Source: Cladocopium goreaui | Lineage: Eukaryota; Sar; Dinophyceae; Suessiales; Symbiodiniaceae | NCBI GenBank assembly: GCA_947184155.2 | Contig: CAMXCT020003437.1 | Location: forward strand, 1 to 64,000 | Reading direction: 5' to 3' | Length of the DNA stretch: 64,000 bases | In this document: positions 1 to 60,879 of the stretch, in pieces | How the letters are laid out: the number at the start of each line of letters is the position of its first letter | Position numbering within the stretch: the first letter of the stretch is position 1 | The notes under the pieces: generated by a model | Database searches by the model: none | Told to the model about the DNA's origin: nothing | Seen by the model: only the letters and a program-made list of their open reading frames with translations | Program-made: the position numbers and the translations under genes

Positions 1-94
1 GCCGACACTGGAAGACCCAGGAAGAAATCGTGCAATGTGATGCTGAGGTTGAAGTCCGTCAGTCCCGGTGGCAAGCCTTGGTTGATGCTGATGG
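1..94 (+). CDS. Block-A exon, 5' part, cut by the 11.2-kb element (copy 1)
   Basis: This matches the uninterrupted block-A exon at 20538-20721 almost base for base and stops at GCTGATGG, where the mobile element begins; the exon resumes at 11320. The reading frame, with plus-strand peptide motifs TGRPRKKSCNVM and SPGGKPWLMLM, is chosen because differences between copies fall mostly in third positions of this frame. I do not recognise the protein. Whether the exon was functional before the insertion cannot be seen, because the upstream boundary lies outside the window. Confidence 0.5.
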
Positions 95-128
95 CCATAA
101 GGATCCTTTAACATAAAATTTTAAATAT
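95..128 (+). repeat. Left terminal inverted repeat, 34 bp
   Basis: It begins CCATAAGGATCCTTTAACAT and is identical over 34 bases to the reverse complement of 11286-11319. The outer part contains the palindrome AAGGATCCTT. Confidence 0.92.
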
Positions 129-720
129 ATCTAAATTTTAAATAGATATTTAAATTTTAATAATATTTAAAATTTAAATATATTTAAATTTTAAATTTAA
201 ATATATTTAAATTAAATTTAAATATCGATATTTAAAATTTAAATATTATTCTAAATTATAGTTTAATAAAAGTGAAAATAGAAATTTAAATTAAACATAA
301 ACTAAAAGTGTTTCAAATATCTAAACTATATTTCAATTTAAATATTATTCTAAACAATTAAATAATTAAAGCGAAATTATAAATTTAAATCAAATATAAA
401 TTGAAAGTATTCACATCTAAACGATATTTCAGTTTATGTGTAATATTCTAAATTACTATATAATAAAAGTGAAAATAAAAATTTCAACTAAATATAATTT
501 GGAATTATTCATATATCTAAACGATATGTCAATTGAAACATTTTTCTAAATTACTATATAATAAGAATTTCAATTTAAGTTAAACTGAATATAAATTAAA
601 ATTATTCACATAAACGATATGTCAATTTTAACATTATTAGAATTTTTATTTAATAGAGGTTGAAATATACATCGAAATTAATTATAAATTATAATTATTC
701 AAACATCTAAATCAACTATT
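118..720. other. AT-rich subterminal tract
   Basis: This is almost pure A+T built from variants of AAATTTAAATAT, later of a diverged roughly 120-bp motif containing ATATTTCAATTT. No gene is seen. A similar but shorter tract adjoins the right terminal repeat, so it is part of the element's end structure. Confidence 0.7.
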
Positions 721-1215
721 CTAATCAAACTCTCAAAACTCTTAAAACTCAAATTGTTATATACGACTCTCAAAACCCTCAAAAATAAACTTGTTGGGGC
801 TCTCGAACCTCTCAAAACTAAAACTGTTACGACTTGCAAAACCATCACCAAAATAAACCTGTTGCGATCTCGAAACTCTCAAAACTAATGAATTCTCAAA
901 ACTAGAATTGCACTCCTCAAAACAATATATATATATATGCCAATATATGGAAAAACAGACGCGTGCAATCCAAACGCCTTTGCCCGGGGATCCGGTTATA
1001 CCGCACCGCTGCGTCCAATCGACTCAGCAACATCTGTCATTAATTTGAATTCCTGAGATGAAAGTTTCTACTACCCTTCTCCGTTTCTGAGTTTGCCAGG
1101 ATGCAAATTGTTATGCACGGTGATCCGTGCAATTAAACCCTCAAAACTAAATTTGTTACAACTCAAAAACCTCAAACCTAAAATTGCTGTGACTCTCAAA
1201 AACATCAAAACTTAA
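721..1215. repeat. CTCAAAAC-rich subterminal repeats
   Basis: Short degenerate units of the type ACTCTCAAAACCCTCAAAA fill about 721-920 and 1134-1215, separated by about 200 bases of less repetitive sequence with no convincing ORF. Matching units occur near the right end at 10955-11100. Confidence 0.6.
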
Positions 1216-1525
1216 ATGTTGAACAAAATGAAATGCATGTGCATGTGCACTCATATTCACGCAGACATGGATCAAAAGAGAAATGCCTGACCGACGGCAT
1301 AGCTCAAATCAAAACAGAGACACGGGCAAAAGAAATAGAAGCTAGCTAAATACCAAACAGCTTCTGGATATGATATATTGAACAGTCGCCCATCTTTCAA
1401 AGACTGCGCGCAAGCAGCAAACATTTAAGGTAAAGAACTAAGCTGAAGAAATCTCCGGCTCAAAAAAACCTCCAGGTACACCCCAGGCTAATTTTCGCCC
1501 CTCAGCGCGCGCGACCGTGCTCCAA
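1216..1525. other. No recognisable gene
   Basis: Ordinary-looking sequence between the subterminal repeats and the first relic ORF. I see no conserved motif, repeat or RNA structure in it. Confidence 0.4.
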
Positions 1526-1870
1526 TTAAAATCCTAAGCGATACTTGGTCATGGTTTTGGTGATACTGGCGAGAGGCTTGGCCCCTTGAACACATTTTAG
1601 GACTAGAGTCTTGACCTTTCCCATGAGGTCCTCCTGTTGCATACAACTTCCCATTGCGGGATTTAAATCACAAGATCTCTGCGCTAAATGGTATACAAGC
1701 CGTGAAATTTTTGGTCATGGCAAAATAATTACCATGATCCGAAAATTCTTCCTTGAGAGCCTGGTACACTCAAACAAATTCCAAAGCAGTTTTCTCCAAT
1801 GCACCAGCAACCTTAGTTTGGCAAGACTGGAGGGTTTCAAGAGATTGTGGAATTTGGAAATGAATTGAAA
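1526..1870 (-). pseudogene. Broken unknown ORF of the mobile element
   Basis: Read on the minus strand, two frames give protein-like text: first a probably helical stretch around residues LETLQSCQTKVAGALEKTA with an in-frame stop after it, then, in another frame, DLMGKVKTLVLKCVQGAKPL ending in a stop at 1526. The simplest reading is one gene broken by a stop and a frameshift. It points the same way as the polymerase relic. I do not recognise the family. Confidence 0.4.
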
Positions 1871-1904
1871 AGATTGGAGAGATCGTTGGTTTGGAAGAGA
1901 TTGA

Positions 1905-2080
1905 ACGGTTTGCATAGGTTTGGAGAGCTGAGAGTGTAGCTTTGAGAGTTTGGAGGGTTTACATAGGTTTTGAGAGCTGAGAGAGTCTAGCTTTGAGAGT
2001 TTAACTTGTTTACATAGGTTTGGAGAGCTGAGAGAGTGTAGCTTTGAGAGCTTGGAGAGCGCAGGTGTCTTCAATTGGTC
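1905..2080. repeat. ~50-bp tandem repeat, about three copies
   Basis: The motif GAGAGCTGAGAG followed by TAGCTTTGAGAG recurs at about 1923, 1972 and 2023. It resembles the complement of the CTCAAA-rich subterminal repeats. Confidence 0.7.
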
Positions 2081-2183
2081 TAAGGGTGAAGCTTGGATTT
2101 GAGAGTTCAGCTTTAGGCTATTTAAATTTCTAGGTTCGCACTGCTGCGCACGGCGATCCGCAGCATTAGTTCTGCTACCAAAC

Positions 2184-2222
<39 letters not shown>

Positions 2223-2261
2223 AGTATAGGCAATGTTCAAACGGCAAAAGTTATACATATG

Positions 2262-2423
2262 CTATGGCGACCTAGGCACGTCGGGGGGTAAACAAGGGAC
2301 ATCTGGGTGACGTTGCACAATTTCGTCATACTCTTTTGATCTTGGCAGTACCATCTTCAAAAGGTTGTCACCTCGAGTGTTGGACTTCACAACACACCAC
2401 AAAGCCTTGATTGGCTCAGTCAT
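2262..2423 (-). CDS. Small unknown ORF, 53 codons
   Basis: An ATG at 2423 opens an uninterrupted frame to TAG at 2262; the frame is open upstream to about 2480. It contains MTEPIKALWCVVKSN, then LPRSKEYDEIVQRHPDV, and reads like true coding sequence: charged, not low-complexity. It lies just outside the left arm of the foldback repeat, on the same strand as the other relic genes of the element. It could be an intact small protein or the tail of a gene whose 5' part was lost when the foldback repeat inserted. Family unknown. Confidence 0.45.
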   Translation of the reverse strand: MTEPIKALWCVVKSNTRGDNLLKMVLPRSKEYDEIVQRHPDVPCLPPDVPRSP

Positions 2424-2489
2424 ACTTCGGTGTTTTTGCTTGATGCGCCGCCTTTGGAATGCAGCAACTGTGCCTTAGCGACCTCTGCT

Positions 2490-5104
2490 GCAACGTCCTG
2501 AGCCATCACTCAGGCAAGTCTCTCCAGCCTTGACGTTTACCCCCTGACAAACCACACACATCCAACCAAAATCCGCCCACACCGCTTTGGCGGTGAAGGC
2601 GTGCTTATTGTGGGGAAACAGCTACACTAAATGCTCAATCACATTTGTTAATATAGCAGTCGCTATATCAGCTTTAGCTGGGGGGGGGCCATGAACGATT
2701 TCGCACCGAGACCAGAATTAGGTGGTGTTTTCGACATTTTTCGATGATTTTTGGGTGTCTGAGCGCAAGAGGGTATTGAAATGGAATTTTGGGTCATTTT
2801 GGTAGCTTTCCGGCAAGGGAAAAACGGCCAAAAATGAAAAAAACATTGTACATAGCAATATTTTGCAGGGTTTTTGGATGCCAGAGCATTGAAAACACTG
2901 CAAAAACGGTGTTTTGGACTGACGTTATAGCAAAAAACGTGTAAATCACATTAAATTACCGTATGTTTGACTGGAAACATTGCAAAAACACTGTCAAAAG
3001 CAATGTTTTGGAAGGATTTACTGCCTTTATGGCAAACACGTGTAAATTACCGCGTGTTTGACTGGAAACATTGGAAAAACACTGTCAAAAACAATGTTTT
3101 GGAAGGATTTCTTATATATATGTTGGAGTTGGCTACCGGCATTGGAACATGGAAAAATTGAAGAAAACACTGTAAATAGCAGTATTTTCAACGGTTGGGG
3201 AGATAAGGGAATTGGAAACATTGTCGAACATGATGTTTTCGACCGGTTTTATGGCGACAAAAGTGTAAAGTACCGTGCTTTGAAGGAAACCATTGCAAAA
3301 ACATGGAAACACATTCAAAGAACATGGGATTTGGGGGGCTATCTAGGCGTCGTTGTCTAGCCATTTGAAGTTCCGCAGCTTGGAGAGCCCCCAAGGGAGG
3401 GAACAGTGAAAATTCTATAGCTTGGGAAGCTGTCACGGCGGGGAAAAGTGAAAATTCCCTAGCTTGGGAAGCCCCCACGGGGGGGGAAAGTGACAATTCC
3501 CTAGCTTGGGGAGCCCCCACGCGGGGGAAAAGTGAAAATTCCCCCGCTTGGGACGCCCCCACGGGGGGGAACAGCGAAAATTCCCTAGCTAGGGAAGCCT
3601 CCGCAGGGGGCAAAGTGAAAATTCCCTCGCTTGGGAAGCCTCTACGGGGAAAAGTGAAACTTCTTAGCTTGGGGAGGGAAAAGTGAAAATTAAATTCCCT
3701 AGCTTGGAAGGCACCCACGAGGGGGCGAAGCGGGGTGAATGAACAATGACTTGGGATGTTCAGTCTTCATATTTTTTGAAAGTAGTTACATCCAAAATCT
3801 TACCTATATATATATATATACATATTTTTTGTGGGGGGTTCCCCAGCCTTGAAATTATTGACAAAATAGCGCCAACCACCCAGAGCCAATGCATCACTAG
3901 AGGAGTGGTTTTCCCAAATTTATTTAGAACAAAAAGTGCAATCCTACCCACAGTTAATCAATCACTTGGGCCCTCCCTAATTTCAAATCTATGCCGTGGA
4001 AAAAAACGATCCAATTGTTTTGCATGACTCGGGGCTTCCCAGCCATCAAATTCCTTGACATAAGAACGGAAAAATCTATCCCAGGAAGTATGTGTTTGAT
4101 ATTTTTTAAAACAATAACAATATGAAAGAAAAACATGTTTTTTCAACAAATGCCAAAGCTTGGAAAGTTTGAAGTATTGAGGTGCCAATTTGGTGTAAGT
4201 TTGATGTAAGCTTACACTTCATGGGATTCATGGGTGGTAAATTTACAACAAACTTACATCAAACTTACATTTATGAGGTGTAAGATGTAAACTTACGCCC
4301 CTGAAGTGTAAGTTTACACCAAACTTACACTGGCAAGTGAAAATTGCACTTGCAGGTGTAATTTTGATGTTAATTCACGGTTGCCAATGAAACCCTGGTG
4401 TAAACTTACACTTCAGGGGCATAGGTTTACATCAAGTTTACACTTCATAAGTGTAAGTTTGATGTAGGTTTGATGTAAGTTTGGTGCAAATTTAAACCCC
4501 ATGAAGTGTAAGTACATCAAATTGACACCAAATTTAGACTTCAATACTTCAAAATTACCACAACCCGTGCATTTTTGATTTGAAAACATGATTGAAATGT
4601 TAAACATGGTTTATTTCAAAACACATGGCTCTTTCAAAAAATACGTCCTTGTTCCAAAAATATGATCAAACCATTGCATTTTTTCAGATAATATCAAACA
4701 CATACTTCCTGGGAGAGATTGTTTCATGTTTATGTCAAGGAAATTGATGGCTGGAAAGCCCGCAGTCATGTAACACAATTGGAGCAATTATTTCCATCAG
4801 ATACATTTGAAATCTACAAAGGCCCAAGTGATTGATTAACTGTGGGTAGGATTGCATGTTTTTTTGCAAAAATAGATTCGGAAAGACTCCTCTAGTGATA
4901 CATTGGCTCTGGGGTGGCACTATTTTTTCAGCAATTTTAAGGCTGGAGAACGCCAATATATAGGTAAGATTTGGATGTAACTACTTAAAAAATGAAGACT
5001 GAACATCCCCAGTCATTGTTTTTTTTTTGCTTGGATGTGTGTGGCTTGTCAGGGGGTAAACGTCAAGGCTGGAGAGACCTCTGAGTGGTGGGTCAGGATG
5101 TTAC
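2490..5104. repeat. 2.6-kb foldback (long inverted) repeat
   Basis: The left arm (2490-2570 plus 3742-4140) is the reverse complement of the right arm (4610-5022 plus 5033-5104), with point differences. The centre, about 4180-4600, is itself a nest of short inverted and direct copies of GTGTAAGTTTGATGTAAGT-like motifs. The left arm is split by a 1.17-kb insertion (2571-3740) absent from the right arm. The unsplit element would be about 1.4 kb, a foldback or MITE-like transposon without coding capacity. ORFs read across it are artefacts. Confidence 0.85.
2571..3740 (-). mobile_element. 1.2-kb dispersed repeat, copy A (inserted in the foldback arm)
   Basis: It runs from ATCCGCCCACACCGC to a right end of GGCGAAGCGGGGTGAAT and interrupts the left foldback arm in an A-rich spot where the intact right arm is continuous. 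Its reverse complement matches 8827-10061. The interior has a tandem run (about 3375-3720) of roughly 40-bp units containing GGAATTTTCACTTTTCCCC and CTTCCCAAGCTAG. The outer end holds a hairpin, ACCGCtttgGCGGT. No transposase is encoded, so it would need help in trans. Confidence 0.8.
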
Positions 5105-5269
5105 AGTAGGTGGTTTTTTCCGTCTATACAACTTGATGCGAAGCTCACCGCACACCTTCAAGGCTTCAAAATTTCACCAAGGAAACCTCGCAAAAATTAA
5201 CCCTGACCCAGAATTTCAAACATTTTTTTTTGATCTCGGATTTCAACGCAAAAAAGACGCAGTGCAATC

Positions 5270-5845
5270 AACTTTTGACCCAAAACTTCAATGCAGAACT
5301 TCAGCCCGGAAGTTCAGTGCGTTGAATTTTTGCATTGAACTTTTGGTATGAAAATTCAAAGTTCAAAGCATTGAATTTTTGCATTTGTTTGCCCGAAACT
5401 TCAATGCATTGAACTTTTGCATTGAACTTTTGGTGAAAAAGTTCGGTGCATTGAACTTTTGCATTGAACTTTTGGTGAAAAAGTTCAATGCAAAACTTCA
5501 ATGCATTGAACTTTTGCATTGAACTTTTAGCATAAAAGTTCAATGCATTGAACTTTTGCATGGAACTTTTGCCCAAAAGTTCAGTGCATTGAACTTTTGC
5601 ATTGAACTTTTGCCCAAAAGTTCAGTGCATTGAACTTTTGCACTGAACTTTTGGTATAAAAGTTCAATGCATTGAACTTTTGCATTGAACTTTTGGTGTA
5701 AAAGTTCAATGCATTGAAGTTTTGCATTGAGCTTTTGCATTGCACTTTTGGCATAAAAGTTTAATGCAATGAACTTTTGCATTGAACTTTTACATGGAGG
5801 TTTCATAGGAAATTTCAATGCATTGAACTTTTGCGAAGACATGCT
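5270..5845. repeat. Tandem array of TTCAATGCATTGAACTTTTG-type units
   Basis: Units of about 26-40 bp built on the palindrome TTCAATGCATTGAA, linked by TTTTGCATTGAACTTTTG, repeat at least 15 times. Because the unit is palindromic the array can fold into many hairpins. The ORFs read through it on the minus strand are low-complexity artefacts. Confidence 0.85.
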
Positions 5846-6430
5846 GCATGAAATTTTTGAGTCAAAAAATCGTCGCGCTGAAGTTTTTACCGTACTTTCA
5901 CGCTGAAATTTGAAGTTGAAAGCTCAATCCACTGAATTTTTGCTTTCATTTTTTCTCTCAAACTTGGGGATAAGGCAAACGCTTTGTTTGGCATATTGCT
6001 CCAGGTTTGGCATTGTGAGCCTCTTTTGAACATGTTTTTTCATTCAGGCCTCCCATATTGTCACCATATTACCCAGACCTAATTTTCCTTAGGTCTGGGT
6101 AGTTTTTCAAGTCATGTTTCATGCTAATTTAGGGTTTCTTCCTTTGTCTTGTAGGCACTGAGGCATATATTCGTATGGGTTGAACGGAATTTTATGCAAA
6201 TATCTGTGTTAAAGGGTTGTGAGAAAGAAGTCATTAGCCATTTGTGTTGAAGGGGTTTGCTCTGTGGGTCTCTGCGGATCATCATGGTGAAAGGAATGAG
6301 ACATTTGGATACATTTGGTTATAGTTCCAATGTTTTCATAAAGGTATGCAATTAAAGAAATTATATATATATATACACCTGTAGCTAGACACAAGCACAC
6401 CTAAGTTCATACCATCCACCTCCATCATTT
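5846..6430. other. No recognisable gene
   Basis: Moderately AT-rich sequence with a short TA run near 6365. It contains a local inverted pair around ACCCAGACCTAATTTTCCTT and AGGTCTGGGT (6070-6101) that could form a hairpin. Nothing else stands out. Confidence 0.4.
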
Positions 6431-6660
6431 CATCATTTACCACAGTTCATTTTCACAACATTTCATATCATTTCATCACAGTATCAAATAACACCACAAC
6501 ATTTCATACATCATCATCCCACATCATTTCATCATCATCCATCATCACATAAATTCAAATCGCAAAAAATCATCGTAATATGTCATCATAAATTTCATCA
6601 TAATATGTTATCATAATATAATATCATAAAATAATATCATAAATCTAAATCATCCATCTC
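6431..6660. repeat. CAT/ATC-rich low-complexity tract
   Basis: Degenerate TTTCATCATCA and CATAATATCATAA motifs. It separates the repeat-filled left part of the element from the gene relics to the right. Confidence 0.7.
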
Positions 6661-7105
6661 TAACATACATATGTTCGTATCATAGTTTTTAATAAATTAT
6701 GATATGAAAAATTATGGGGATAAACATTTTTTAAAGTTTTTTGGTGTAATGTTTTCCAGATTTGTTTCAATTTTGCAATTCTGGTTTTATCATATTTTAA
6801 GTATTCCTCCATCTTTTTTTGCTTTTTATCTTCTTCCTTTTTGAGTTTTTCCTTGTTGATATGCCTGTCGGTTTTTAAGATGTTTGAACAACCTGCATTG
6901 TTTCACATTCCGCTGGCAAATGTCGCAGAATTCTTCCTTTTGATTATAATAGACTGTGTTACTCGCCTTTTGTTTGCCCAAGCATTCAATATACATTCTA
7001 TTCATTCCATTGAACTCGTCACCCTTTTTTATTTTTCTTACACTTTTTGCATGTTCTACTCTGTATACTATTATAAAGTATTATCCTTTTAAGATATTTT
7101 AAGCG
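6661..7105 (-). pseudogene. Frameshifted cysteine-rich (zinc-ribbon-like) relic
   Basis: On the minus strand the text runs from about 7100 down to 6661 in at least three frames. The first part has a C-x2-C pair (TCKKCKKNKK). After a shift come KASNTVYYNQKEEFCDICQR with a second C-x2-C and then FKHLKN, suggesting a zinc-binding fold. After another shift there is a lysine/glutamate-rich stretch (KKQKKMEEYLKYDKTRIAKL) likely to form a helix. Such paired cysteine motifs are common in small proteins of protist DNA viruses, but this is only a resemblance. It lies directly downstream of the helicase relic on the same strand, consistent with one viral gene cluster. Confidence 0.5.
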
Positions 7106-7173
7106 TATTTCCTTATATCATAAAATTTCATCCAAATCTGTTTCCCAAAAAACACCGTAGATTTCATTTTTTT

Positions 7174-8826
7174 CTATTCCTGTTCCTCTTCTGTATCTTT
7201 ACCTCCTACTCTTTTGCATATCTGCAAAAAGATATTGTATTTGAAAATTATGTCCATGCAATTGTCAACATACTCCTCTCCATTTGGGTTGTTGGTGAAG
7301 GTGGGGTTTTCATTGCAGAAGACTCTTACCTTTTTCAAGATATAAGGACTTGACATGTAGATTTCATCAAAAAAGATTACATCATAATCGTTGTAATCAT
7401 ACCTTGGTAGCCTGCTTTCCCCCTTACACGCAGGAACACTGAATAATCTATTTTGGGTGACTGCATCGCATGGAACATCTTGCTTTTGCATATTTTGAGG
7501 AACAACAAAAAGTGTATTCTTACCACTTCCTGCAAATTTTGCCCTAATCATGACTCTCTTCTTCCTTATTGCTGGTGTGTTTAATTGCTTCTGTGTCCCA
7601 GTCATAATGAACCTCAATCATTTCGTTTTTGTAAATCGGTATTTTTGGAATCTCATTGTGTTTCCATCCATAGACTTCGGGAACAGGAACAACTTTCTTA
7701 TCTTCCGCTCTTCAGCCTCCTATGTCATTATGAAAATTCAATATATTTTTTAGTTTTCTTTAAATCTCGCTTTGCTATGTGAAAGGCATCAGTCTTTACA
7801 ACGTAAACATTGATGGCCTCCTTCAAATTTTCATATGCATCATGCATATGAAAGTTGTGATTTTGTAACAGTAGGTCTTTGATATACCTAAATCCGTTCA
7901 TCAACTGCCTTTGGTCACTGACATTGACTATATTAATATTTGGCTGTCTCGTTTTTTTTCTCTATCTTTTGGTTGAAAGAATCATTTTCACAGTAGTAGG
8001 TTTTGCCATCCTCGAAGTTATAATCGAAATCTGTAAAACACGCACCGCCATTCACATGTCTAACAAAAGGGTTTGTTGTTCTCATCAACTTCCATAGTCC
8101 AATCGTCTTCCAATTCTCTCCATTTAAAATTTAAAATATTTTTCATACTCTTCCTTGTTCATTGCGTAAATCCTCCCATCATATTTTTTCCGGTGCCGTA
8201 CTGCCTCCTTAGGATTATCAAAAATCTTATTTTTCTTTTGTAAGACTTCTCAAGCAAACCAAAGGCTACATTAGCAATAGTTTTCAAGACTGTTTGATTC
8301 TCAAATTTGTCATCGCTAATCACTGTTTTATAAAAAATGTCAACCACTTTCTTATACTTCACTCTGTGAATGTATGAAGGTACTTTGCAAAATAGTTTTT
8401 TCATTGCCACCCCTCTCTTAATCAATTCCTTCAGGTGCTTCCCATACACCAAATTACATTTTTTTGGTAGAAAACAAATGTTGCTCCGACATGCCCTCAC
8501 TATGAACAAGGTGTAGTTGTTGACTTTGTTAAAATCATATTTTTTGGTGTATGGTTTCCATACGTCAAAATTTTTGAACACTGGAATGTGTGTAATCTTT
8601 GTTGCTTGGTATGAGTAGGCTTTCCGTGTGTCGATGCTACACATATCTTCAGGGACAAGGACAAGTTCATAGCCCTTGCTATCATCCTTTAACAACCTTC
8701 CATTAGGAACAATGGTTCTGCATTCATCCAATGCTTTAAGGTCAGTTTCGTTATAGTATGACTTGTGGTTTTCACTGAAAATTGACTCATGAAACTTGAA
8801 CACTGTCGCGCTGGTTTTGTTGTATT
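7174..8826 (-). pseudogene. Family B DNA polymerase + helicase relic (Polinton-like virus type)
   Basis: Read on the minus strand. Palm motif A appears as SIDTRKAYSY (about 8610-8640), followed by a stretch typical of this family (IPVFKNFDVWKPY, YTLFIVRA, LVYGKHLKELI). Motif B is KTIANVAFGLLEKS (about 8245-8287). After frameshifts near 8230 and several more between 8160 and 7860, motif C is VYVVKTDAF (about 7785-7805). Another shift near 7570 leads into a helicase-like domain with a Walker A variant AGSGKNT (7513-7533) and Walker B YDVIFFDEI (about 7365-7390). The order polymerase then helicase-like domain in one reading direction matches fused replication proteins of Polinton-like viruses and virophages. 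The amino-terminal exonuclease part is missing: the frame runs into a stop where repeat copy B begins at 8827. With at least five frame breaks it cannot make an active enzyme. Confidence 0.75.
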
Positions 8827-10061
8827 ATTCACCCCGCTTCGCGTGGGGTGGCCGCCCACACCGCACATTTCGGTTCGAATTTTCACTTTTTCCCAAGCGA
8901 GGGAATTCCCCCGCAAAACCTTCCCAAGCTAGGGAATTTTCGCTTTTCCCCCCCGTGGGGGCTTCCCAAGCGAGGGAATTTTCACTTTTCCCCCCCGTGG
9001 GGGCGTCCCAAGCTAAGAAGTTTCACTTTCCCTTCGTGGGGGCTCCCCAAGCTAGGGAATTGTCACTTTTCCCCCCCGTGGGGGCTTCCCAAGCTAAGAA
9101 GTTTCACTTTCCCTTCGTGGGGGCTCCCCAAGCTAGGGAATTGTCACTTTTCCCCCCCGTGGGGGCTTCCCAAGCTAGGGAATTTTCACTTTTCCCCACC
9201 GTGACAGCTTCCCAAGCTATGGAATTTTCACTTTTCCCTCCCTTGGGGGCTCTCCAAGCTGCGGAATTTCAAATGGCTAGACAACGACGCCTAGATAGCC
9301 CCCCAAATCCCATGTTCTTTGAATGTGTTTCCATGTTTTTGCAATGGTTTCCTTCAAAGCACGGTAATTTACACTTTTGTCGCTATAAAACCGGTCGAAA
9401 ACATCATGTTCGACAATGCTTCCAATTGCCTTATCTCCCCAAACCGTTGAAAATACCGCTATTTAGAGTGTTTTCTTCAATTTTTCCATGTTCCAATGCC
9501 GGTAGCCAACTCCAACATATATATAAGAAATCCCAAAACATTGTTTTTGACAGTGTTTTTCCAACGTTTCCAGTCAAACACGCGGTAATTTACACGTGTT
9601 TGCCATAAAGGCAATAAATCCTTCCAAAACATTGCTTTTGACAGTGTTTTTGCAATGTTTCCAGTCAAACATACGGTAATTTAATGTAATTTGCACGTTT
9701 TTTGCTATAACGTCAGTCCAAAACACTTGTTTTTGCAGTGTTTTCAATGCTCTGGCATCCAAAAACCCTGCAAAATATTGCTATGTACAAATGTACAATG
9801 TTTTTTTTCATTTTTGGCCGTTTTTCCATTGCCGGAAAACTACCAAAATGACCCAAAATTCCATTTCAATACCCTCTTGCGCTCAGACACCCAAAAATCC
9901 TCGAAAAATGTCGAAAACGGTCTCGGTGCGAAACCGTTTTTGGCCCCCCCCCAGCTAAAGCTGATATAGCGACTGCTATATTAACAAATGTGATTGAGCA
10001 TTTAGTGTAGCTGTTTCCCCCCAATAAGCACGCCTTCACCGCCAAAGCGGTGTGGGCGGAT
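8827..10061 (+). mobile_element. 1.2-kb dispersed repeat, copy B
   Basis: It starts ATTCACCCCGCTTCG and ends GTGTGGGCGGAT; it is the reverse complement of copy A with small indels. Near both ends the 13-mer CCGCCCACACCGC occurs in inverted orientation (8850-8862 and 10048-10060), a possible terminal repeat. Tandem 40-bp units fill 8890-9260. It abuts the truncated 5' end of the polymerase relic on one side and an unknown minus-strand ORF on the other. Long frames through it are products of the repeat units. Confidence 0.8.
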
Positions 10062-10314
10062 TCCTCTGTTTCCACCAAGATATCATCATTGATTCTATCA
10101 CAGCAACACCGGTCGTCCACGTAACATGACCGACTTTGTGAGACAGCATCCCGGTGTCACCGTGCAAATTTCTCCCACAAACCAACATGCCATCCTCTAA
10201 AGCCTTTTGCAGCTCGGCAACGCCAACACCTATAGTCAGCCGAGTCAGTTTTTCATAAACTTTTTCGAAACAGTGAAATTGCAGTAGCGCCTGGTTCTGC
10301 TGACAACCGTGCAC
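10062..10314 (-). CDS. Unknown ORF truncated by repeat copy B
   Basis: From ATG 10314 the minus frame stays open to the edge of repeat copy B, with complex protein-like text (for example FHCFEKVYEKLTRLTIGV, AELQKALEDGMLVCGRNLHG, MLSHKVGHVTWTTGVAVIES). The frame is open back to 10331. The 3' part has been replaced by the repeat, so this is a gene fragment. It has the same orientation as the polymerase relic. I do not recognise it. Confidence 0.45.
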
Positions 10315-10510
10315 GAACCGTTCCAGACTTCATGGCAGCTATCTGACCATGTCTCTCAAATTCTCTTGACTCTCAAAATCTAAAGCTGCAACTGCGGGCA
10401 TGTATGCATATTGGTCTACGCGCAGTTTTCCAAACTTACACGCAACTCTTGGCAGGCAAAAAAAAAACTAGCATGGTGGACAACCATTTTCCTATGTTGC
10501 ACGCACCGGT

Positions 10511-10825
10511 CTATTGCAATATATTTTTTACAGAAACAGCTTGCAAGTCGCAAGAACAATCCTTGGAAATCAAAGCCAATTTGGCCTTTTCAGGCTCAGT
10601 CAAAAGCCCGTCACAATATGCCATCATACAACTCAGACAGCAGCGATCGCCCGCAAACGCTTCCAACTCCAGCATGAGTTGTCTATCTTGCACGGGTCGC
10701 TTGAACATCTCCTGCAAAGCGTCCTTCAACGATTCAAACTTACTGCTGCTCAGCACGTACGCCATTGGAGATTTCTGGCAAACAGATTTCGATCCACAAT
10801 ATTGAGCCAAATCTATACACGCCAT
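10511..10825 (-). CDS. Unknown ORF, 104 codons, cysteine-containing
   Basis: An uninterrupted minus-strand frame from ATG 10825 to a stop at 10511. The text is protein-like: SSKFESLKDALQEMFKRPVQ, LMLELEAFAGDRCCLSCMM, LTEPEKAKLALISKD, with six cysteines in the second half. No family is recognised. It precedes the truncated ORF at 10314 by about 200 bases on the same strand; that gap is stop-rich, so they could be exons or parts of one decayed gene. Confidence 0.5.
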   Translation of the reverse strand: MACIDLAQYCGSKSVCQKSPMAYVLSSSKFESLKDALQEMFKRPVQDRQLMLELEAFAGDRCCLSCMMAYCDGLLTEPEKAKLALISKDCSCDLQAVSVKNILQ

Positions 10826-10954
10826 GCATCGATCGATGCACTCGCAAAATTTTCATGCACATGGTTTTTCGACGTATATATGATCGACAAGCAATAACCA
10901 AACGGAATCTCGACAATTCGGTAAACATATAAATATATTCAATGAACACTCTGC

Positions 10955-11100
10955 ACTCAAAAATCTACTCTCAAAATCCTCAAAACGCAACTCTCAAGAA
11001 TGAACACTCTCAAAACTCAAGTCTCAAAACCCGGACTCTCAAGAATTAACGCTCTCAAAATTCAACTCGCAAAACCCTCAAAAAGCAACTTTCAAAGATA
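10955..11100. repeat. CTCAAAAC-rich subterminal repeats, right side
   Basis: Units such as ACTCTCAAAACTCAAGTCTC mirror the composition of 721-920 near the left end. Together with the AT-rich tracts they give the element a layered end structure. Confidence 0.6.
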
Positions 11101-11144
11101 ATTTTTAACATTTTTGTATGAGTGAGAGATCATGAAAATGTAAT

Positions 11145-11300
11145 GTTTGATGAAATTTAAATATATTTAAATTTAAATTTTAAATACACATTTAAAATGT
11201 ATATTTAAAATTAATTTAAATAATATTTAAAATTTAAATAATATCTAATTTTTTTAAATTTAATTAATTTTTTTAATTTTAAATAATATTTAAAATTTTA
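11145..11300. other. AT-rich subterminal tract, right side
   Basis: AAATTTAAATAT-type sequence running into the right terminal repeat, the counterpart of 118-720. Confidence 0.7.
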
Positions 11301-11319
11301 TGTTAAAGGATCCTTATGG
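11286..11319 (-). repeat. Right terminal inverted repeat, 34 bp
   Basis: The reverse complement of 95-128, without mismatch. The very end reads GGATCCTTATGG, after which the interrupted host exon continues with ATGTTTTGTTG. Confidence 0.92.
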
Positions 11320-11374
11320 ATGTTTTGTTGAATGGATTTCACGAAGGAATGATTGTGAAGGCCAACGCTGGAAG
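11320..11374 (+). CDS. Block-A exon, 3' part (copy 1)
   Basis: Continues the exon begun at 1-94; in the joined frame it would read DVLLNGF and so on, to a GGAAG|GTGATAG donor at 11374/11375 that is conserved in every copy. The insertion makes this copy of the gene non-functional unless the whole 11.2 kb were removed. Confidence 0.5.
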
Positions 11375-11667
11375 GTGATAGTTACTGAGAAACCAACAAC
11401 TCTCACAAAGGCGCACAGTGGACAAGAGACCAAGGCACTTCAGCCCAGCCCAACGTCAAGTGTGCACGGAAGACGGTTTCTGTTCAGGAGTCAGAAAAGA
11501 CTACAGACCAAGATTGGTCGTGGCCCCCATTGCAGTTGCAAACCCATAGGCCAGAGACCAACTACACAAATCAAACACACACCCTGTGTTTTTTTGACAC
11601 CACTTATTAACAAAAACAATGTCCCACTGTTTTTAATGTTACATCCCTTACTTCTCAAAACATTCTC

Positions 11668-11805
11668 ATGATATCAGCGGCAAATGCGCCCACCATCCAA
11701 GAAGCTGATGGTACTCCGTGGCAGGGTGGACCAGGCCAGAACTCTCTGGAAGCCAAGCCCCGAAAGGCTGAGCCGCGCTGGGAGCGTCTTCCTGGCGAAG
11801 CTTGA
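11668..11805 (+). CDS. Block-B terminal exon (copy 1)
   Basis: The plus frame from ATG 11668 to TGA 11805 gives 45 residues (MISAANAPTIQEADGTPWQG, then GPGQNSLEAKPRKAEPRWER). ATATCAG just before CGGCAAATGCG may be a splice acceptor, so the first residues may not be coding. Composition and G/C-ending codons favour coding on this strand, although the minus strand is also open. Conserved at 21015, 40265 and 49533. Product unknown. Confidence 0.45.
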   Translation: MISAANAPTIQEADGTPWQGGPGQNSLEAKPRKAEPRWERLPGEA

Positions 11806-11936
11806 AATAAACGGCGGAGTTTCGATTCGATTCATGTAATGGTTTAGAAATTAATTTGAACACCTTGATGAAATGTATTGATGTGTACTTACATATTGGA
11901 GTAATTACTCGACTATGATTCAGCATGATCCCACAG

Positions 11937-12090
11937 GATTACAACCTCAAATTCCCAGCGCCAAGCGGCAAGGGCGAGAAGCGGATGAACTGCTCCGTGG
12001 CCCGCAGCGACGGCCGTGGCCACGCGCGGGATCCGTTGCCTCGGCGCATGGACACGAGGACGTGGCGAAGCCATGGGAGATGTTGGGGAA
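11937..12090 (+). CDS. Block-C exon (copy 1)
   Basis: Begins after the acceptor ATCCCACAG|GATTAC. The plus frame reads DYNLKFPAPSGKGEKRMNCS, then RDPLPRRMDTRTWR, basic and G/C-rich. The 3' limit is not certain: no clear GT donor is visible, but GA donors are possible near 12050-12090. Repeated at 21286, 40535, 49815 and 61138. Product unknown; it probably belongs to the same plus-strand gene as block A. Confidence 0.45.
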
Positions 12091-12458
12091 AACATGGGAA
12101 AAAACATGGGAATGGAACATATATGGATTTTGCAGGAATCCGTTGGGTTTTATATAGATCCTATAGTTATTTAAAAAAAACGGTTGGTGTGTTAAAAACA
12201 CAAACTTCTTGAAGCAGTAAATGGTCTAACTTTCAGTAAAGAAGCGAGATTTGAGAAGTCGACAGAAAACTGTCTAATGTATGCCTTGGTACCGTTTCTA
12301 CTCCTTAGCTCAATGGCGCAAACAAATGAAAACCCAATGAATCCACGCCATCCTCATGTCACTGTCAGTACCTGTACTCAACAATTCTACTTTCCGAGCT
12401 TTAACAATCAGTTGGCCACTCTCCATCCACAACAGCCCGCCAGTTCCACCACCGTCGC

Positions 12459-12553
12459 CTCGAGAGGCGAATCTCCGCGATCACCGCGCCCTTGTCGTCC
12501 TCCACGGCCTCAACTCCCGCTGCTGCCATAGCGCCCTGGTTGAAGGATACGTC
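12459..12553 (-). CDS. Block-D type I exon (copy 1)
   Basis: On the minus strand, an acceptor TTCAG|GACGTATCC opens a single frame DVSFNQGAMAAAGVEAVEDD, then KGAVIAEIRLS, ending at CTCGAG|GCGACGG, which would be a GC donor. The ATG inside (minus, 12529) could be an alternative start. The acidic, alanine-rich text looks genuine. The unknown minus-strand gene to which it belongs is not otherwise resolved. Confidence 0.45.
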
Positions 12554-13615
12554 CTGAAGCGAGTTTGACCTGGACCCTCAACCCATAAAGATCATAAAGA
12601 TTTGTGCAAAGTACCAAAAAGATTGGGAGAACAAACCCGATGGATACTCGGAGGTTCCAGGTATATTGAGACGTATTGAGACATTTCATGAATAGGTCAA
12701 ACTGAGTTGATACCAAGCAATAATTGAGCAATAAACAATAACTTACATCAAATAAAGGAAGTAGACACTGGACCCAACAAAAACATACCAAGAACATCCA
12801 AGAACTAGAGGCAAAGGTAGTCTGCAATCCACTGGGGGGCAATATGGGGCAACATACCCAGACTTTCTAGCCTTGATTTTTCAATGTTACTCTCCTCCAA
12901 ACTATCATAGGTGTGGAAAACCTAACATTTTTTGTCAATTTTCCTAGGGTTTGTTCCACATCTACGTTGGTTTACCCCAGGGTAAGCATTTGCTCAGCAT
13001 GTGCCACCACTGTTCCAAGGTTTCCCAAGGGCTGTCCATCTGCACCATATATTTCTGCTGCCAATAGTATTGGCAAAACTGGGTTCCTGCATCTGTTTTC
13101 TATGAACATCTCTAAAGCATCATAAGCATCAGAAAGAAAATGGACCCATTAAATGCGAGCCCAGAAGCATAGCTCATCGCTTATAGGCTGGAGATGCCAA
13201 CAAAGCAGAAGACCATCCTGACGTCCGCGAGAAGGTGAAAACATGGTGGGACGGCTGGGCGAGGGCAGCTGTGCTGGTGTTTTTAAGGTTAAAAAAAACG
13301 GTGGTTTGGTGACGGAAATCGTTCTGTTGGGTTGTTTTGGTATGTTTGTTGTTCGCTTAATGGTATATGATCCACTTACTGGCTGAAAATGCAGCTAGCA
13401 AATCACTCCATAACAAATGAATCGAAACACCAGCCAGATTGAGATCTCTAAGCATGGACAGTTCAGCGCAGGCAGTTTGACCCACTGCAAGCTGCATGCA
13501 GCGCTACATGTTTTTTCCGTTGTGAACGGTGCTCCTCTATCTCCTCTGGAGATTCAGAAAAAAACAAAAGGTAAACCACAGTGAACCTGCGATAAACGGT
13601 TGATCCTTGCGAATG
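12554..13615. other. Block-D type I intron-like and decayed sequence
   Basis: Aligns with 50431-51489. It contains relics of type II exons: the segment around 13000-13080 corresponds to the exon at 27974-28090 but has lost its coding part. A short conserved island at 13192-13290 reads, on the plus strand, ADHPDVREKVKTWWDGW-like text. No complete gene is seen. The stretch also holds the region just downstream of the ARM/TIR-like gene stop. Confidence 0.4.
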
Positions 13616-13788
13616 TCAACTTGAGCCGTCCTTGCCCACTTTGTGCCTTTGGAGGGCAGTGGCAATTTGTGCGGCAATTTCTATTTCCGATTTTTCTCGG
13701 CATTCTAGGAACACAACGCTCGGCTTGAAGACACTCAAAATATATCCTTGAGCAAGGTGCTCTTTGTCATACGCGTGACCAGGCCCAC
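13616..13788 (-). CDS. TIR-like domain exon C (gene 1)
   Basis: Follows acceptor GTTCAG|GTGGGCC and, joined to exon B in phase 1, reads GGPGHAYDKEHLAQGYILSV then FKPSVVFLECREKSEIEIAA, stopping at TGA (13616). It supplies the last strand and helix of the proposed TIR-like fold. Acceptor, frame and stop are the same in the three other copies (33004, 43702, 51490), which supports the exon call more than any single copy does. Confidence 0.6.
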
Positions 13789-13967
13789 CTGAACAACCCC
13801 CCAAACCCTGCAGCTAAAGTGATTCACCCGCTGGTTGTGGGGATGCTCATGCGTTTCTAGAGAAACTGTAACATGTAGTATTGGGTTTCATCACTTCTAT
13901 TAAACCTGGTTGTTGCAATACAAGCTTCATTCAACACTCAGGCAGCTAGGCTTTGACAAATACCAAC

Positions 13968-14052
13968 CTGGTGGTTCTGGCGGGTACGTGTCATCCACCC
14001 TCAGCGGCAAGACTGTCACAAACTTCTCGTAATCCAGAGCAAACTTCAGCTC
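13968..14052 (-). CDS. TIR-like domain exon B (gene 1)
   Basis: An 85-nt exon with acceptor TAAG|GAGCTGAAG and donor CCACCAG|GTTGGT. It reads ELKFALDYEKFVTVLPLRVD then DTYPPEPP. The glutamate at its first codon, preceded by HK from exon A, falls where TIR NAD hydrolases carry their catalytic glutamate. The following hydrophobic strand and acidic turn also fit TIR domains. This is family knowledge applied to a short match, so moderate certainty. Confidence 0.6.
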
Positions 14053-14264
14053 CTTACAGTGTTGCAGGGCTCCCAATATATTCTATTTACAATAATGAGC
14101 AAGTCTCCAGTTCATTAATGGGGGTGCCAATGTTAATAATTTAACACGATGGTGATCAGGATTTCTTACATTATGACTGTGTTGTGGAGGCAACCACTAT
14201 TTCACAACCAAAAGATGGATGTTTAAGAACCCAAACATGCAAAGTGTATATAAGGAATCCTGTC

Positions 14265-14586
14265 CTTGTGGGACGAATAAGCAGAAGCAGTCATCTCGCC
14301 GTAGTGCTTGGTACACACAGCAATCATGGTGCCATTTTCTTTGTGCAGCCGCCCCAAGTATTTGGTGGTCAAATCCCCGAAGCTTTGGCCAGCATCTGCA
14401 GCCACCATGAGGATATCATACTTTCGGTCACATAGAATCTGGAACACTTTGCGGATTTTCCTTAGAGAGACGGCACTCGGGCAACATAAACTCAAGCTTT
14501 TCACAGGCACCAAAACGGATGCCAAAACCAAACTGGGGAATTCTGATCCCATGTATATACCATGTGATTGGAGGTTGACATAATAC
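14265..14586 (-). CDS. TIR-like domain exon A (gene 1)
   Basis: From acceptor TTTCAG|GTATTATG to CACAAG|GACAGG, a GA donor. The 3' two-thirds read KYDILMVAADAGQSFGDLTT then KYLGRLHKENGTMIAVCTKH and YGEMTASAYSSHK. The 5' third is open in two frames (one with LEFMLPECRLSKENPQS), so an internal shift or extra short intron near 14440 is possible; all four copies share this ambiguity. It links the ARM exon to the TIR-like part. Confidence 0.5.
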
Positions 14587-14632
14587 CTGAAACATCCTGG
14601 AACTACAATTGCAAAAGAGAAGAAATCAAACT

Positions 14633-17518: not shown

Positions 17519-18045
17519 CTATTGGGGTGCCCCTGGCTTGAGCCGCTGAGCTACCCATCCCTACAGCTTCATGGAAGGTATGTCAAATGTTGAGACTTCA
17601 ACATACTTCCGCAACCTGCAGAAGGTCAACATTCCACGCACCAGGTGTGAAACCTGTGGGAAAACTTCAATAGTTTCACCCAATTTTCGGAGCCAAGCCA
17701 CCGGGCCAGTCGGGGCGCACCACACCGAAGTCGATGATGTGATTCTGCGCCGGGATCCTGGAGCTTTTCTCTAACATGGACCATAGATGTGCGAGAACCC
17801 ACCATGGCTGTCGCGCATTTTTCCCAGGAAAATCATGGAAACGTTCCACGCCTATGTTATTTATTACACGTTTAGCCCAGGGTAAGCATTGGACATACCC
17901 TAGCGAATCTCCATGACTCATAGGTTACCACTGGCTTCATGGTAGATTATCAGATTATCACCTTAGATTGTGAGGGGTAAAACAAGACATTAACTCACAG
18001 GCATGGGATATCATTGGGATATTATGGGGACTTCATGGGGATATT

Positions 18046-18077
<32 letters not shown>

Positions 18078-18143
18078 CAGTATAGATTATATATATATAT
18101 GTATATATATATACATATATGTATATATATATATACATATATG

Positions 18144-18174
<31 letters not shown>

Positions 18175-20537: not shown

Positions 20538-20721
20538 GGTGGAAATGGCTCCGAGTTGCAACCACTGAAGAGGCCGACACTGGAAGACCCAGGAAGAAAT
20601 CGTGCAATGTGATGGTGAGGTTGAAGTCCGTCAGTCCCGGTGGCAAGCCTTGGTTGATGCTGATGGATGTTTTGTTGAATGGGTTTCACCAAGGAATGAT
20701 TGTGAAGGCCAACGCTGGAAG
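20538..20721 (+). CDS. Block-A exon, intact (copy 2); empty site of the 11.2-kb element
   Basis: Acceptor ACATAG|GG and donor GGAAG|GTGATAG bound a 184-nt exon, read WKWLRVATTEEADTGRPRKK and on to MDVLLNGFHQGMIVKANAG. The element's insertion point corresponds to GCTGATGG^ATGTTTTG at about 20665. No family is recognised; the text is basic with a hydrophobic middle. Confidence 0.5.
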
Positions 20722-21014
20722 GTGATAGTTACTGAGAAACCAACAACCCTCACAAAGGCGCACAGTGGACAAGATACCAAGGCACTTCAGCCCAGCCCAA
20801 CGTCAAGTGTGCACGGAAGACGGTTTCTGTTCAGGAGTCAGAAAAGACTACAGACCAAGATTGGTCGTGGCCCCCATTGCAATTGCAAACCCATAGGCCA
20901 GAGACCAACTACACAAATCAAACACACACCCTGTGTTTTTTTGACACCGCTTATTAACAAAAACAATGTCCCACTGATTTTAATGTTACATCCCTTACTT
21001 CTCAAAACATTCCC

Positions 21015-21152
21015 ATGATATCAGCGGCAAATGCGCCCACCATCCAAGAAGCTGATGGTACTCCGTGGCAGGGTGGACCAGGCCAGAACTCTCTGGAAGC
21101 CAAGCCCCGAAAGGCTGAGCCGCGCTGGGAGCGTCTTCCTGGCGAAGCTTGA
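21015..21152 (+). CDS. Block-B terminal exon (copy 2)
   Basis: Same 45-residue frame as at 11668, intact from ATG to TGA. About 290 bases downstream of the block-A donor, in keeping with a small intron between them. Confidence 0.45.
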   Translation: MISAANAPTIQEADGTPWQGGPGQNSLEAKPRKAEPRWERLPGEA

Positions 21153-21285
21153 AAGAGACGGCTGAGTTTTCGATTCGATTCATGTAATGGTTCAGAAATT
21201 AATTTGAACACCTTGATGAAATTTATTGATGTGTACTTACACATTGCAGAAATTTCTCGATTAGGATTCAGCATGATCCCAGCAG

Positions 21286-21440
21286 GGTTCCAACCCTCAA
21301 CTTCCCAGCGCCAAGCGGCGAGGGCGAGAAGCGGATGAACTGCTCCGTGGCCGGCAGCGACGGCCGTGGCCACGCCTGGGATCCGTTGCCTCGGCGCATG
21401 GACACGACGACGTGGCGAAGCCATGGGAGATCTTGGGGAA
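21286..21440 (+). CDS. Block-C exon (copy 2)
   Basis: Acceptor CCCAGCAG|GGTTCCAACC; the frame reads VPTLNFPAPSGEGEKRMNCS. The exon start differs from copies 1, 3 and 4 by a few bases (GGTTCCAACCCTC versus GATTACAACCTC) but the frame after the acceptor is kept. Copy 5 shares this version. Confidence 0.45.
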
Positions 21441-21659
21441 AAAATGGGACAAAACCGAGGAAATGGAAAATATTTGGATTTTGTAGGAATCCATTGGGTT
21501 TTACTCTAGATATCTCTGGATCCTATATTTTAAAAAATGTTGCTGTGTTAAAAATTAAAGGACCGGATAACCCCACATGTTACCAACTTCTTTAGACTTA
21601 GACTGACCATAGAAGAGCAAGAAGGGAAGAGGAAGTATAAGAGTGATGGAGCGGTGATG

Positions 21660-22465: not shown

Positions 22466-22528
22466 GTTCTCTTTTCCGTTCCCGGCACAGACCGGAAACA
22501 TCATAACTGCATGGCATAACTTGTAGAA

Positions 22529-24421: not shown

Positions 24422-24454
<33 letters not shown>

Positions 24455-24640
24455 ATCTATCTATGTAACATCTATGTAACAATCTATCTATCTATTCTGT
24501 GCACGTCGAACATGTTGCAAACAGGCCAAGCTACACCGAGCAGTCTGACACACGTCAAACAGGCCGGTATATCAAACATGCCAGGCCGACGTCAAAACAT
24601 GCCAGGGAGACGGCAAAGCTGAAACTGAATGGAGTGAACC
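23755..24640. repeat. ~240-bp tandem repeat with GCACGTCAAACATGTTGCAA core
   Basis: The motif TTCTGTGCACGTCRAACATGTTGCAAACAGGCCAAGCTA recurs at about 23757, 23818, 24254 and 24494. The later units also contain AACATGCCAGGGAGACGGCA and a TATC microsatellite, giving a period near 240 bp. Confidence 0.85.
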
Positions 24641-33973: not shown

Positions 33974-34009
33974 CTGAAACATCCTGTAACTACAAAAAAA
34001 AGAAAAGAA

Positions 34010-39787: not shown

Positions 39788-39971
39788 GCCGGAAATGGCT
39801 CCGAGTTGCAACCACTGAAGAGGTCGACACCGGAACACCCAGGAAGAAGTCGTGCAATGTGATGCTGAGGTTGAAGTCCATCAGTCCCGGTGGCAAGCCT
39901 TGGTGGATGCTGATGGATGTTTTGTTGAATGGATTTCACCAAGGATTGACTGTGAAGGCCAGCGCTGGAAG
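39788..39971 (+). CDS. Block-A exon (copy 3)
   Basis: Intact and uninterrupted, with TGTPRKKSCNVMLRLKSISP. Another empty-site paralogue of the 11.2-kb element. Confidence 0.5.
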
Positions 39972-40264
39972 GTGATAGTTACTGAGAAACCAACAACTCT
40001 CACAAAGGCGCACAGTGGACAAGAGACCAAGGCACTTCAGCCCAGCCCAACGTCAAGTGTGCACGGAAGACGGTTTCTGTTCAGGAGTCAGAAAAGACTA
40101 CAGACCAAGTTTGGTCGTGGCCCCCATTGCAGTTGCAAACCCATAGGCCAGAAACCAACTACACAAATCAAACACACACCCTGTGTTTTTTTGACACCAC
40201 TTATTAACAAAAACAATGTCCCACTGTTTTTAATGTTACATCCCTTACTTCTCAAAACATTCTC

Positions 40265-49055: not shown

Positions 49056-49239
49056 GCGGGAAATGGCTCCGAGTTGCAACCACTGAAGACGTCGACACCG
49101 GAACACCCAGGAAGAAGTCGTGCAATGTGATGCTGAGGTTGAAGTCCATCAGTCCCGGTGGCAAGCCTTGGTTGATGCTGATGGATGTTTTGTTGAATGG
49201 ATTTCACCAAGGATTGATTGTGAAGGCCAACGCTGGAAG
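49056..49239 (+). CDS. Block-A exon (copy 4)
   Basis: Intact, with VDTGTPRKKSCNVMLRLKS, donor GGAAG|GTGATAG; empty site for the large element. Confidence 0.5.
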
Positions 49240-49532
49240 GTGATAGTTACTGAGAAACCAACAACTCTCACAAAGGCGCACGGTGGACAAGAGACCAAGG
49301 CACTTCAGCCCAGCCCAACGTCAAGTGTGCACGGAAGACGGTTTCTGTTCAGGAGTCAGAAAAGACTACAGACCAAGTTCGGTCGTGGCCCCCATTGCAG
49401 TTGCAAACCCATAGGCCAGAAACCAACTACACAAATCAAACACACACCCTGTGTTTTTTTGACACCACTTATTAACAAAAACAATGTCCCACTGTTTTTA
49501 ATGTTACATCCCTTACTTCTCAAAACATTCCC

Positions 49533-58050: not shown

Positions 58051-58069
58051 ATATATGTACTTAATACCA

Positions 58070-58755: not shown

Positions 58756-58756
58756 G

Positions 58757-60361: not shown

Positions 60362-60546
60362 GGTGCAAATGGCTCCGAGTTGCAACCATTGAAGAGGCCG
60401 ACACCGGAAGACCCAGGAAGAAATCGTCCAACGTGCTGCTGAAGTTGAAGTCCATCAGTCCCGCTGGTAAGCCTTGGTTGATGGCGATGGATGTTTTGTT
60501 GAATGGATTTCACCCAAGGCTTGATTGTGAAGGCGAACGCTGGAAG
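60362..60546 (+). pseudogene. Block-A exon (copy 5), frameshifted
   Basis: One extra base (CACCCAAGG for CACCAAGG) shifts the frame after NGFH. Up to there TGRPRKKSSNVLLKLKSIS is preserved, with many third-position changes, as expected of an old coding copy that broke recently. Confidence 0.5.
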
Positions 60547-60879
60547 GTGATAGTTACTGAGAAACAAATACAAATCTCACATAGTCGCACAGTGGACAAG
60601 AGACCAAGGCACTTCAGGCCAGCCCAACCACAAGCCAAGAACTGATTGCTTGTCAAATGTGCATAGAACGCAATTTCTGGTCAGAAGCTGTCAGAAGTCA
60701 GAAAAGACTGCAGGCCAAGTTTGGTCGTGGCCGCCTTTGCAATTGCAAACCCATAGGCCAGAAACCAGCTAAACAAATCAAACACATACCTGTGTTTTTG
60801 ACACCACTTATTTATCAACAAAAAAAAGTGTCGAACTGCTTTTAATTTTACATCCCTTACTTATCAACATCCCCATGAT

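What the first reader, a model, noticed from the sequence alone, without database searches (positions are those of the whole stretch)
95..11319. An 11.2-kb TIR element with a viral-type polymerase, with its empty site in the same window
Perfect 34-bp terminal inverted repeats enclose a segment that splits one copy of a repeated host exon. Four unsplit copies (20.6, 39.9, 49.2, 60.5 kb) show the pre-insertion sequence, and joining the flanks restores it exactly. Inside is a decayed polymerase and helicase-like gene of the Polinton-like-virus/virophage kind plus unknown ORFs. Elements of this class are poorly described in dinoflagellates, and the layered ends (TIR, AT-rich, CTCAAAAC-rich) are not a pattern I know. 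The absence of a normal 5-6 bp target duplication is also unusual.
Basis: partly seen in the sequence, partly recalled or inferred. Interest (0 to 1): 0.9.

Follow-up and report, generated by a model that had tools for sequence, protein, structure and literature searches.

The report
Nested insertion carrying broken viral gene
One copy of a repeated host segment is cut cleanly by an 11-kilobase mobile-looking piece of DNA with matching ends; inside it is a patchwork of older repeats and the wreck of what looks like a viral replication gene, an ordinary kind of find in protist genomes but a clear example.

Summary
The core observation is real. A perfect 34-bp terminal inverted repeat (95-128, 11286-11319) bounds 11,225 bp that splits one of five copies of a host segment; four unsplit copies in the window give the empty site. 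The interpretation needs correcting. The interior is a nest. A dead polymerase/helicase-like gene (minus strand, pieces between 10099 and 7174) begins mid-gene, runs in several frames, and is split by a 1.2-kb repeat also present, inverted, from 2570. Another old inverted-repeat element lies at 2485-5109. Relatives show a polymerase-like part fused upstream of a superfamily 1 helicase, the order described for Tlr1-type proteins of Polinton-like viruses; the polymerase assignment itself rests on motifs. Relatives share the window copy's deletions (97-99% identical) or its frameshifted tail (95%), so broken forms have been copied. The target duplication is ambiguous (0-4 bp; host ATGG equals the element's last four bases). 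That the split segment is an exon is not shown. No capsid, integrase or transposase was recognised in the 20 ORFs inside the element. A second copy of the ends could not be sought in the host genome: that search did not complete. Best reading: a non-autonomous composite element with a dead viral gene fragment as passenger.

The parts
95..128 (+). left terminal inverted repeat, 34 bp perfect
11286..11319 (-). right terminal inverted repeat, 34 bp perfect; its last four plus-strand bases ATGG equal the host bases left of the insertion
129..720 (.). AT-rich left subterminal region (GC 0.13 over 95-720) with a 98-bp tandem repeat at 236-711
11100..11285 (.). AT-rich right subterminal region (GC 0.11 over 11100-11319)
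729..1220 (+). CTCAAAAC-rich stretch, left
10953..11094 (+). CTCAAAAC-rich stretch, right, same orientation as the left one
2485..5109 (.). nested older inverted-repeat element; its left arm is interrupted by repeat R copy 1
2570..3711 (+). repeat R copy 1 (aligned span; contains 42-bp tandem units)
8919..10062 (-). repeat R copy 2, inverted (aligned span); lies inside the polymerase-like gene, which resumes at 8830
10061..10099 (-). 5'-most recognised piece of the polymerase-like gene, a short match (13-14 aa, E about 0.001, four relatives); homology stops at 10099 although the relatives continue
8162..8830 (-). polymerase-like piece (palm motifs A and B by eye), ends in an out-of-frame tail
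7571..8103 (-). rest of the polymerase-like part and linker in changing frames (motif C-like VKTDAF by eye)
7174..7617 (-). superfamily 1 helicase-like piece with two internal deletions relative to relatives
10511..10825 (-). 104-aa ORF of unknown function, with relatives in 7 clusters (45 member sequences)
1..94 (+). left host flank
11320..11800 (+). right host flank, continuous with 1-94 in the four empty copies
20573..20761 (+). empty site 1 (joint 20666/20667)
39825..40011 (+). empty site 2 (joint 39916/39917)
49093..49279 (+). empty site 3 (joint 49184/49185)
60397..60585 (+). empty site 4 (joint 60490/60491)

Best explanation
A non-autonomous composite element with 34-bp terminal inverted repeats inserted cleanly into one copy of a repeated host segment. 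Its interior is a nest of older repeats plus a truncated, dead fragment of a polymerase-helicase gene of the Tlr1 / Polinton-like-virus type, carried as a passenger. Shown: precise insertion, ends, nesting, broken gene, and broken forms of the gene present in other sequences. Inferred: that an integrase or transposase supplied by another element recognised the ends, that the insertion used the shared ATGG either as a 4-bp target duplication or as a short homology, and that the fragment comes from an endogenous Polinton-like virus.
For: Perfect ends and four empty sites. The gene's recognised part starts at 10099, where matches of P0015, P0026, P0029 and P0042 stop although each has more sequence upstream. 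Repeat R copy 2 separates 10061 from 8830 of the same gene, and its other copy splits a different repeat. Pieces run in several frames. P0043 (12 member sequences, 6 contigs) and P0044 (10, 3 contigs) align over their whole length without gaps at 99% and 97%, so they share both helicase deletions that P0045 and P0047 lack. P0001 (13 members, 95% identical) shares the out-of-frame polymerase tail. P0071 and P0088 have the polymerase-like end and the helicase start in one ORF. P0053 and P0057 match the Dda-like SF1 helicase family phrog_325 at 6e-7 and 7.7e-5. CTCAAAAC runs in the same direction at both ends, as if one tract had been split by later insertions.
Against: No second copy of the ends was seen: exact matches to parts of the end were 0 in viral contigs and 0 in prokaryote genome contigs, and the own-genome search did not complete. 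So it is not shown that the unit as a whole has ever moved as one, and copies of the broken gene could have spread by other means, such as segmental duplication. The polymerase assignment rests on motifs read by eye; no profile or structure search confirmed it. P0071 and P0088, the two fused relatives, matched no helicase family themselves at E up to 1 (P0071; P0088).
Confidence: 0.55

Rival explanations
1. A decayed Polinton-like-virus provirus: the 34-bp TIRs are the viral ends, and the polymerase-helicase gene was its own gene, later cut down by internal deletion and by repeats inserting into it.
For: The gene lies in the right half and reads away from the right end; TIRs often delimit full-length OmPLV copies, and OmPLV genes are commonly fragmented (PMC12721341, sections 13 and 18); low GC of the gene region, 0.34 against 0.48 for the flank 11320-21554.
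Against: About 1.2 kb without recognised viral genes lies between the gene and the right end; none of the 20 ORFs inside the element reached a Pfam cut-off, so no capsid, protease, packaging or integrase gene was recognised, though decay could hide them; the CTCAAAAC tract runs in the same direction at both ends.
Confidence: 0.3
2. A very large introner-like insertion that is spliced out as an intron, as short elements with inverted repeats and 3-5 nt direct repeats are in Amoebophrya.
For: It splits a conserved host stretch exactly, with inverted repeats and a possible 4-nt direct repeat ATGG at the boundary, like the anatomy described in PMC7789003 (passages).
Against: The host stretch is not shown to be coding; no usual splice dinucleotides at the boundary as read; 11 kb and a 34-bp repeat exceed the 8-20 nt repeats reported; no transcript data.
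Confidence: 0.05
3. Assembly artefact joining unrelated contigs.
For: Only 94 bp of left flank in the window; the left flank is closest to the copy at 20.6 kb (93 of 94), the first 800 bases of right flank are closer to the copies at 39.9 kb (781 of 807 columns) and 49.2 kb (785 of 814) than to the copy at 20.6 kb (767 of 805).
Against: Both junctions fall at the outer ends of a perfect inverted repeat and restore the host sequence to the base as in all four copies; a chance misjoin would not.
Confidence: 0.04
4. An autonomous DNA transposon of a known superfamily whose transposase is present but unrecognised.
For: The 104-aa ORF at 10511-10825 has relatives in 7 clusters with 45 member sequences; four of the seven representatives have the same length of 104 aa.
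Against: The ORF is too short for a transposase on its own and matches no family above noise.
Confidence: 0.05

Closest known systems
Tlr1-type pPolB-S1H fusion proteins of Polinton-like viruses, Tlr1 elements and transpovirons (PMC11071308, passages)
   Same: Polymerase-like part followed by a superfamily 1 helicase in one protein (P0071, P0088)
   Different: Here only a dead fragment; N-terminal domains missing or unrecognised; the palm assignment was not confirmed by profile or fold search; presence or absence of an exonuclease domain was not tested
OmPLV of the dinoflagellate Oxyrrhis marina (PMC12721341; abstract, sections 13 and 18, passages)
   Same: Endogenous, low-GC, multi-copy, with fragmented polymerase and SF1 helicase genes
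   Different: OmPLV has helicase before polymerase, a complete exonuclease domain, about 25 kb, and capsid and tyrosine recombinase genes; the domain order differs here and no such genes were recognised
Polintons / Mavericks
   Same: Large TIR element with a polymerase-type gene
   Different: Polintons usually make 6-bp target duplications (recalled); at most 4 bp fit here
Introner elements of Amoebophrya (PMC7789003, passages)
   Same: Inverted repeats with a short direct repeat at the insertion boundary
   Different: Those are introns with 8-20 nt repeats; this is 11.2 kb, and neither exon nor splicing is shown

Membership tests
Tlr1-type pPolB-S1H gene (PLV) | Polymerase part upstream of SF1 helicase in one protein | tested here: met
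   Order met in relatives: P0071 and P0088 carry both parts in one ORF and align to the window pieces in that order; the nature of the upstream part is a separate row
Tlr1-type pPolB-S1H gene (PLV) | SF1 helicase domain | tested here: met
   Met in relatives P0053 and P0057: phrog_325 Dda-like helicase, 6e-7 and 7.7e-5; Pfam AAA_30 in 8 of 14 members of A2, best 2.7e-4, below the cut-off in the three shown. The window piece itself, P0071 and P0088 match no helicase family
Tlr1-type pPolB-S1H gene (PLV) | Family B palm domain | tested here: inconclusive
   Motifs by eye, recalled (SIDxRKA, KTxANxxFGL, VKTDAF); no polymerase match in Pfam, PHROGs, NCBIfam or PDB sequences that supports a family B DNA polymerase; AlphaFold models mean pLDDT 45.2 and 44.5
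Tlr1-type pPolB-S1H gene (PLV) | N-terminal TP and vOTU domains | tested here: inconclusive
Polinton-like virus (whole element) | Double jelly-roll major capsid protein | tested here: inconclusive
   None reached a Pfam cut-off among the 20 ORFs of 80 aa or more inside the element; a decayed gene cannot be told from a missing one
Polinton-like virus (whole element) | Integrase (rve type or tyrosine recombinase) | tested here: inconclusive
   Same 20 ORFs, none
Polinton / Maverick | 6-bp target duplication (recalled) | tested here: not met
   0-4 bp fit
TIR DNA transposon / MITE-like | Terminal inverted repeats bounding a precise insertion | tested here: met
TIR DNA transposon / MITE-like | Target duplication of fixed length | tested here: inconclusive
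   One insertion only; ATGG ambiguous
TIR DNA transposon / MITE-like | Further copies with the same ends | tested here: inconclusive
   Exact searches: viral contigs 0, prokaryote contigs 0; own genome search unanswered 12 times
Introner | Spliced as an intron | not testable with these tools
   No transcript data

The most novel reading that the evidence does not exclude
An element family that spreads a dead viral replication gene and inserts without a net target duplication, by recombination at a 4-base match (ATGG) between the host and the element's own ends; joined end to end, the two ends would form a palindrome containing that match, as expected for a circular intermediate integrated by a recombinase supplied in trans.
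Probability: 0.1. Interest if true: 0.7.

Novelty: new member of a known kind. Interest (0 to 1): 0.38.

Why it matters
An insertion with its empty sites beside it defines an element to the base, which is useful in repeat-rich protist genomes. If further copies carry the same broken gene between the same ends, it would show how viral genes outlive their virus as cargo of another mobile element, and the ATGG question would become a direct test of how such elements integrate.

Full report
The core observation holds. The two ends 95-128 and 11286-11319 are a perfect 34-bp inverted repeat counted from the outermost base. No other place in the window matches it with up to 3 mismatches, and none did in 100 dinucleotide shuffles. 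In 200 single-base shuffles of the two 200-bp ends the longest shared inverted word was 17, mean 11.2.

The empty site is equally clear. The 94 bases left of the element match four other places, and in each the sequence right of the element continues at the very next base: 20666/20667, 39916/39917, 49184/49185, 60490/60491. All four read GATGG followed by ATGTTTTG. Whether the stretch is an exon is not shown: in three of the four copies five of the six frames are open for 51-82 codons around the joint, and the fourth has a 1-base insertion about 30 bases downstream. The array also holds long armadillo-repeat ORFs on the minus strand (2 of 8 long ORFs scanned).

The target duplication cannot be settled from one insertion. 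The host bases to the left are GATGG, and the element's right end is TTATGG. So ATGG can be read as a 4-bp target duplication, as a shared core, or as chance with no duplication; 5 or 6 bp do not fit. A given 4-base match has a chance of about 1 in 256 by simple counting.

The interior is a nest. A repeat (R) of 1,142 aligned bases lies at 2570-3711 and, inverted, at 8919-10062. The first copy interrupts the left arm of an older inverted-repeat element at 2485-5109. The second interrupts the polymerase-like gene: relatives match 10099-10061 (a short match, E about 0.001, in P0015, P0026, P0029 and P0042) and then 8830 or just below onward. Tandem repeats fill about 5358-5834 and the AT-rich ends. 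The CTCAAAAC motif has the same direction at both ends (7 left and 3 right on the plus strand; 1 on the minus strand within the element), which suggests one tract split by later insertions rather than mirrored ends. That is an inference.

The gene. Searches used open pieces only. At E up to 1 the 214-aa piece 8159-8803 has 42 relatives among 99 candidates, the 147-aa piece 7174-7617 has 49 among 52. Two relatives, P0071 and P0088, carry the end of the polymerase-like part and the start of the helicase in one ORF, and align to the window in that order but in changing frames. Two helicase relatives, P0053 and P0057, match the Dda-like SF1 family phrog_325 at 6e-7 and 7.7e-5; Pfam AAA_30 is matched by 8 of 14 members of the helicase alignment at E up to 0.1, best 2.7e-4. 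Against this, the window's own two pieces match no Pfam family, nor do P0071 and P0088 match a helicase family (P0088 only). The polymerase-like part has palm-type motifs by eye, a recalled pattern; profile, PDB sequence and fold searches did not confirm it. Polymerase before SF1 helicase is the order of Tlr1-type proteins of Polinton-like viruses (PMC11071308, passages) and the reverse of that in OmPLV (PMC12721341, passages).

The gene is a fragment and dead. Homology stops at 10099, although four relatives extend further upstream. Two stretches of the helicase are missing relative to P0045 and P0047. P0043 (12 member sequences, 6 contigs) and P0044 (10, 3 contigs) align to the window over their whole length without gaps at 99% and 97%, so they share those deletions; P0001 (13 members, 95%) shares the out-of-frame tail of the polymerase piece. 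Broken forms have therefore been copied after breaking. Whether they were copied between these same ends is not known, and some of these sequences may be the same locus in other assemblies.

The 104-aa ORF 10511-10825, outside the gene, has 7 relatives among 8 candidates, 81-100% identical, 45 member sequences in all. The longest contig of each cluster is 890-1467 bases; sources are ena, lgn and jgi. It matches no known family. Its role is unknown; it may be the element's own gene or a chance frame in a multi-copy repeat.

Other genes. All 20 ORFs of 80 aa or more that lie wholly inside the element (of 25 listed for 1-12000) were scanned against Pfam; the few matches are noise below cut-off, best E 0.038. 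No capsid, integrase or transposase was recognised. Decayed genes in shorter pieces could be missed.

What could not be done. The genome search was asked 12 times and never answered, so the decisive test, a second element with the same ends, is open. IMG/VR and prokaryote contigs have no exact match to the parts of the end searched, and IMG/VR gave no confirmed relatives of the gene, but these are not collections of protist genomes. The host was not identified.

Judgement. The best reading is a non-autonomous composite TIR element with a dead viral gene fragment as cargo (0.55), the main rival a decayed Polinton-like provirus with these ends (0.3). The introner rival was lowered from 0.06 to 0.05 because the check showed that the exon is not established. 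Endogenous PLVs and their fragments in dinoflagellates and other protists are in print (PMC12721341; PMC10120064, passages; Maverick annotation in Breviolum, PMC11071213, passages), so this is a new member of a known kind, made useful by its empty sites.

Noticed in passing
21555-26988: The copy at 20.6 kb carries a 5.4-kb insertion absent from the copies at 40.8 and 61.4 kb, rich in GTGA/ATCT simple repeats and a 78-bp tandem array; its ends do not match the 34-bp TIR.
   Followed up: partly
28156-30275: A 2.1-kb stretch missing at 41969 and present, as far as the window reaches, after 62.5 kb: an indel between host copies.
   Followed up: partly
14636-17518, 33817-35328: Large armadillo-repeat ORFs on the minus strand with 123-bp tandem units (Pfam Arm, E 1.2e-144 and 1.4e-47).
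   Followed up: partly
10511-10825: 104-aa ORF with relatives in 7 protein clusters whose longest contigs are 890-1467 bases; five of the seven lie between 1237 and 1467.
   Followed up: partly
56068-56682, 57444-58053, 58126-58994: Dense block of tandem arrays (75-bp, TACAT, 24-bp and 41-bp units).
   Followed up: no
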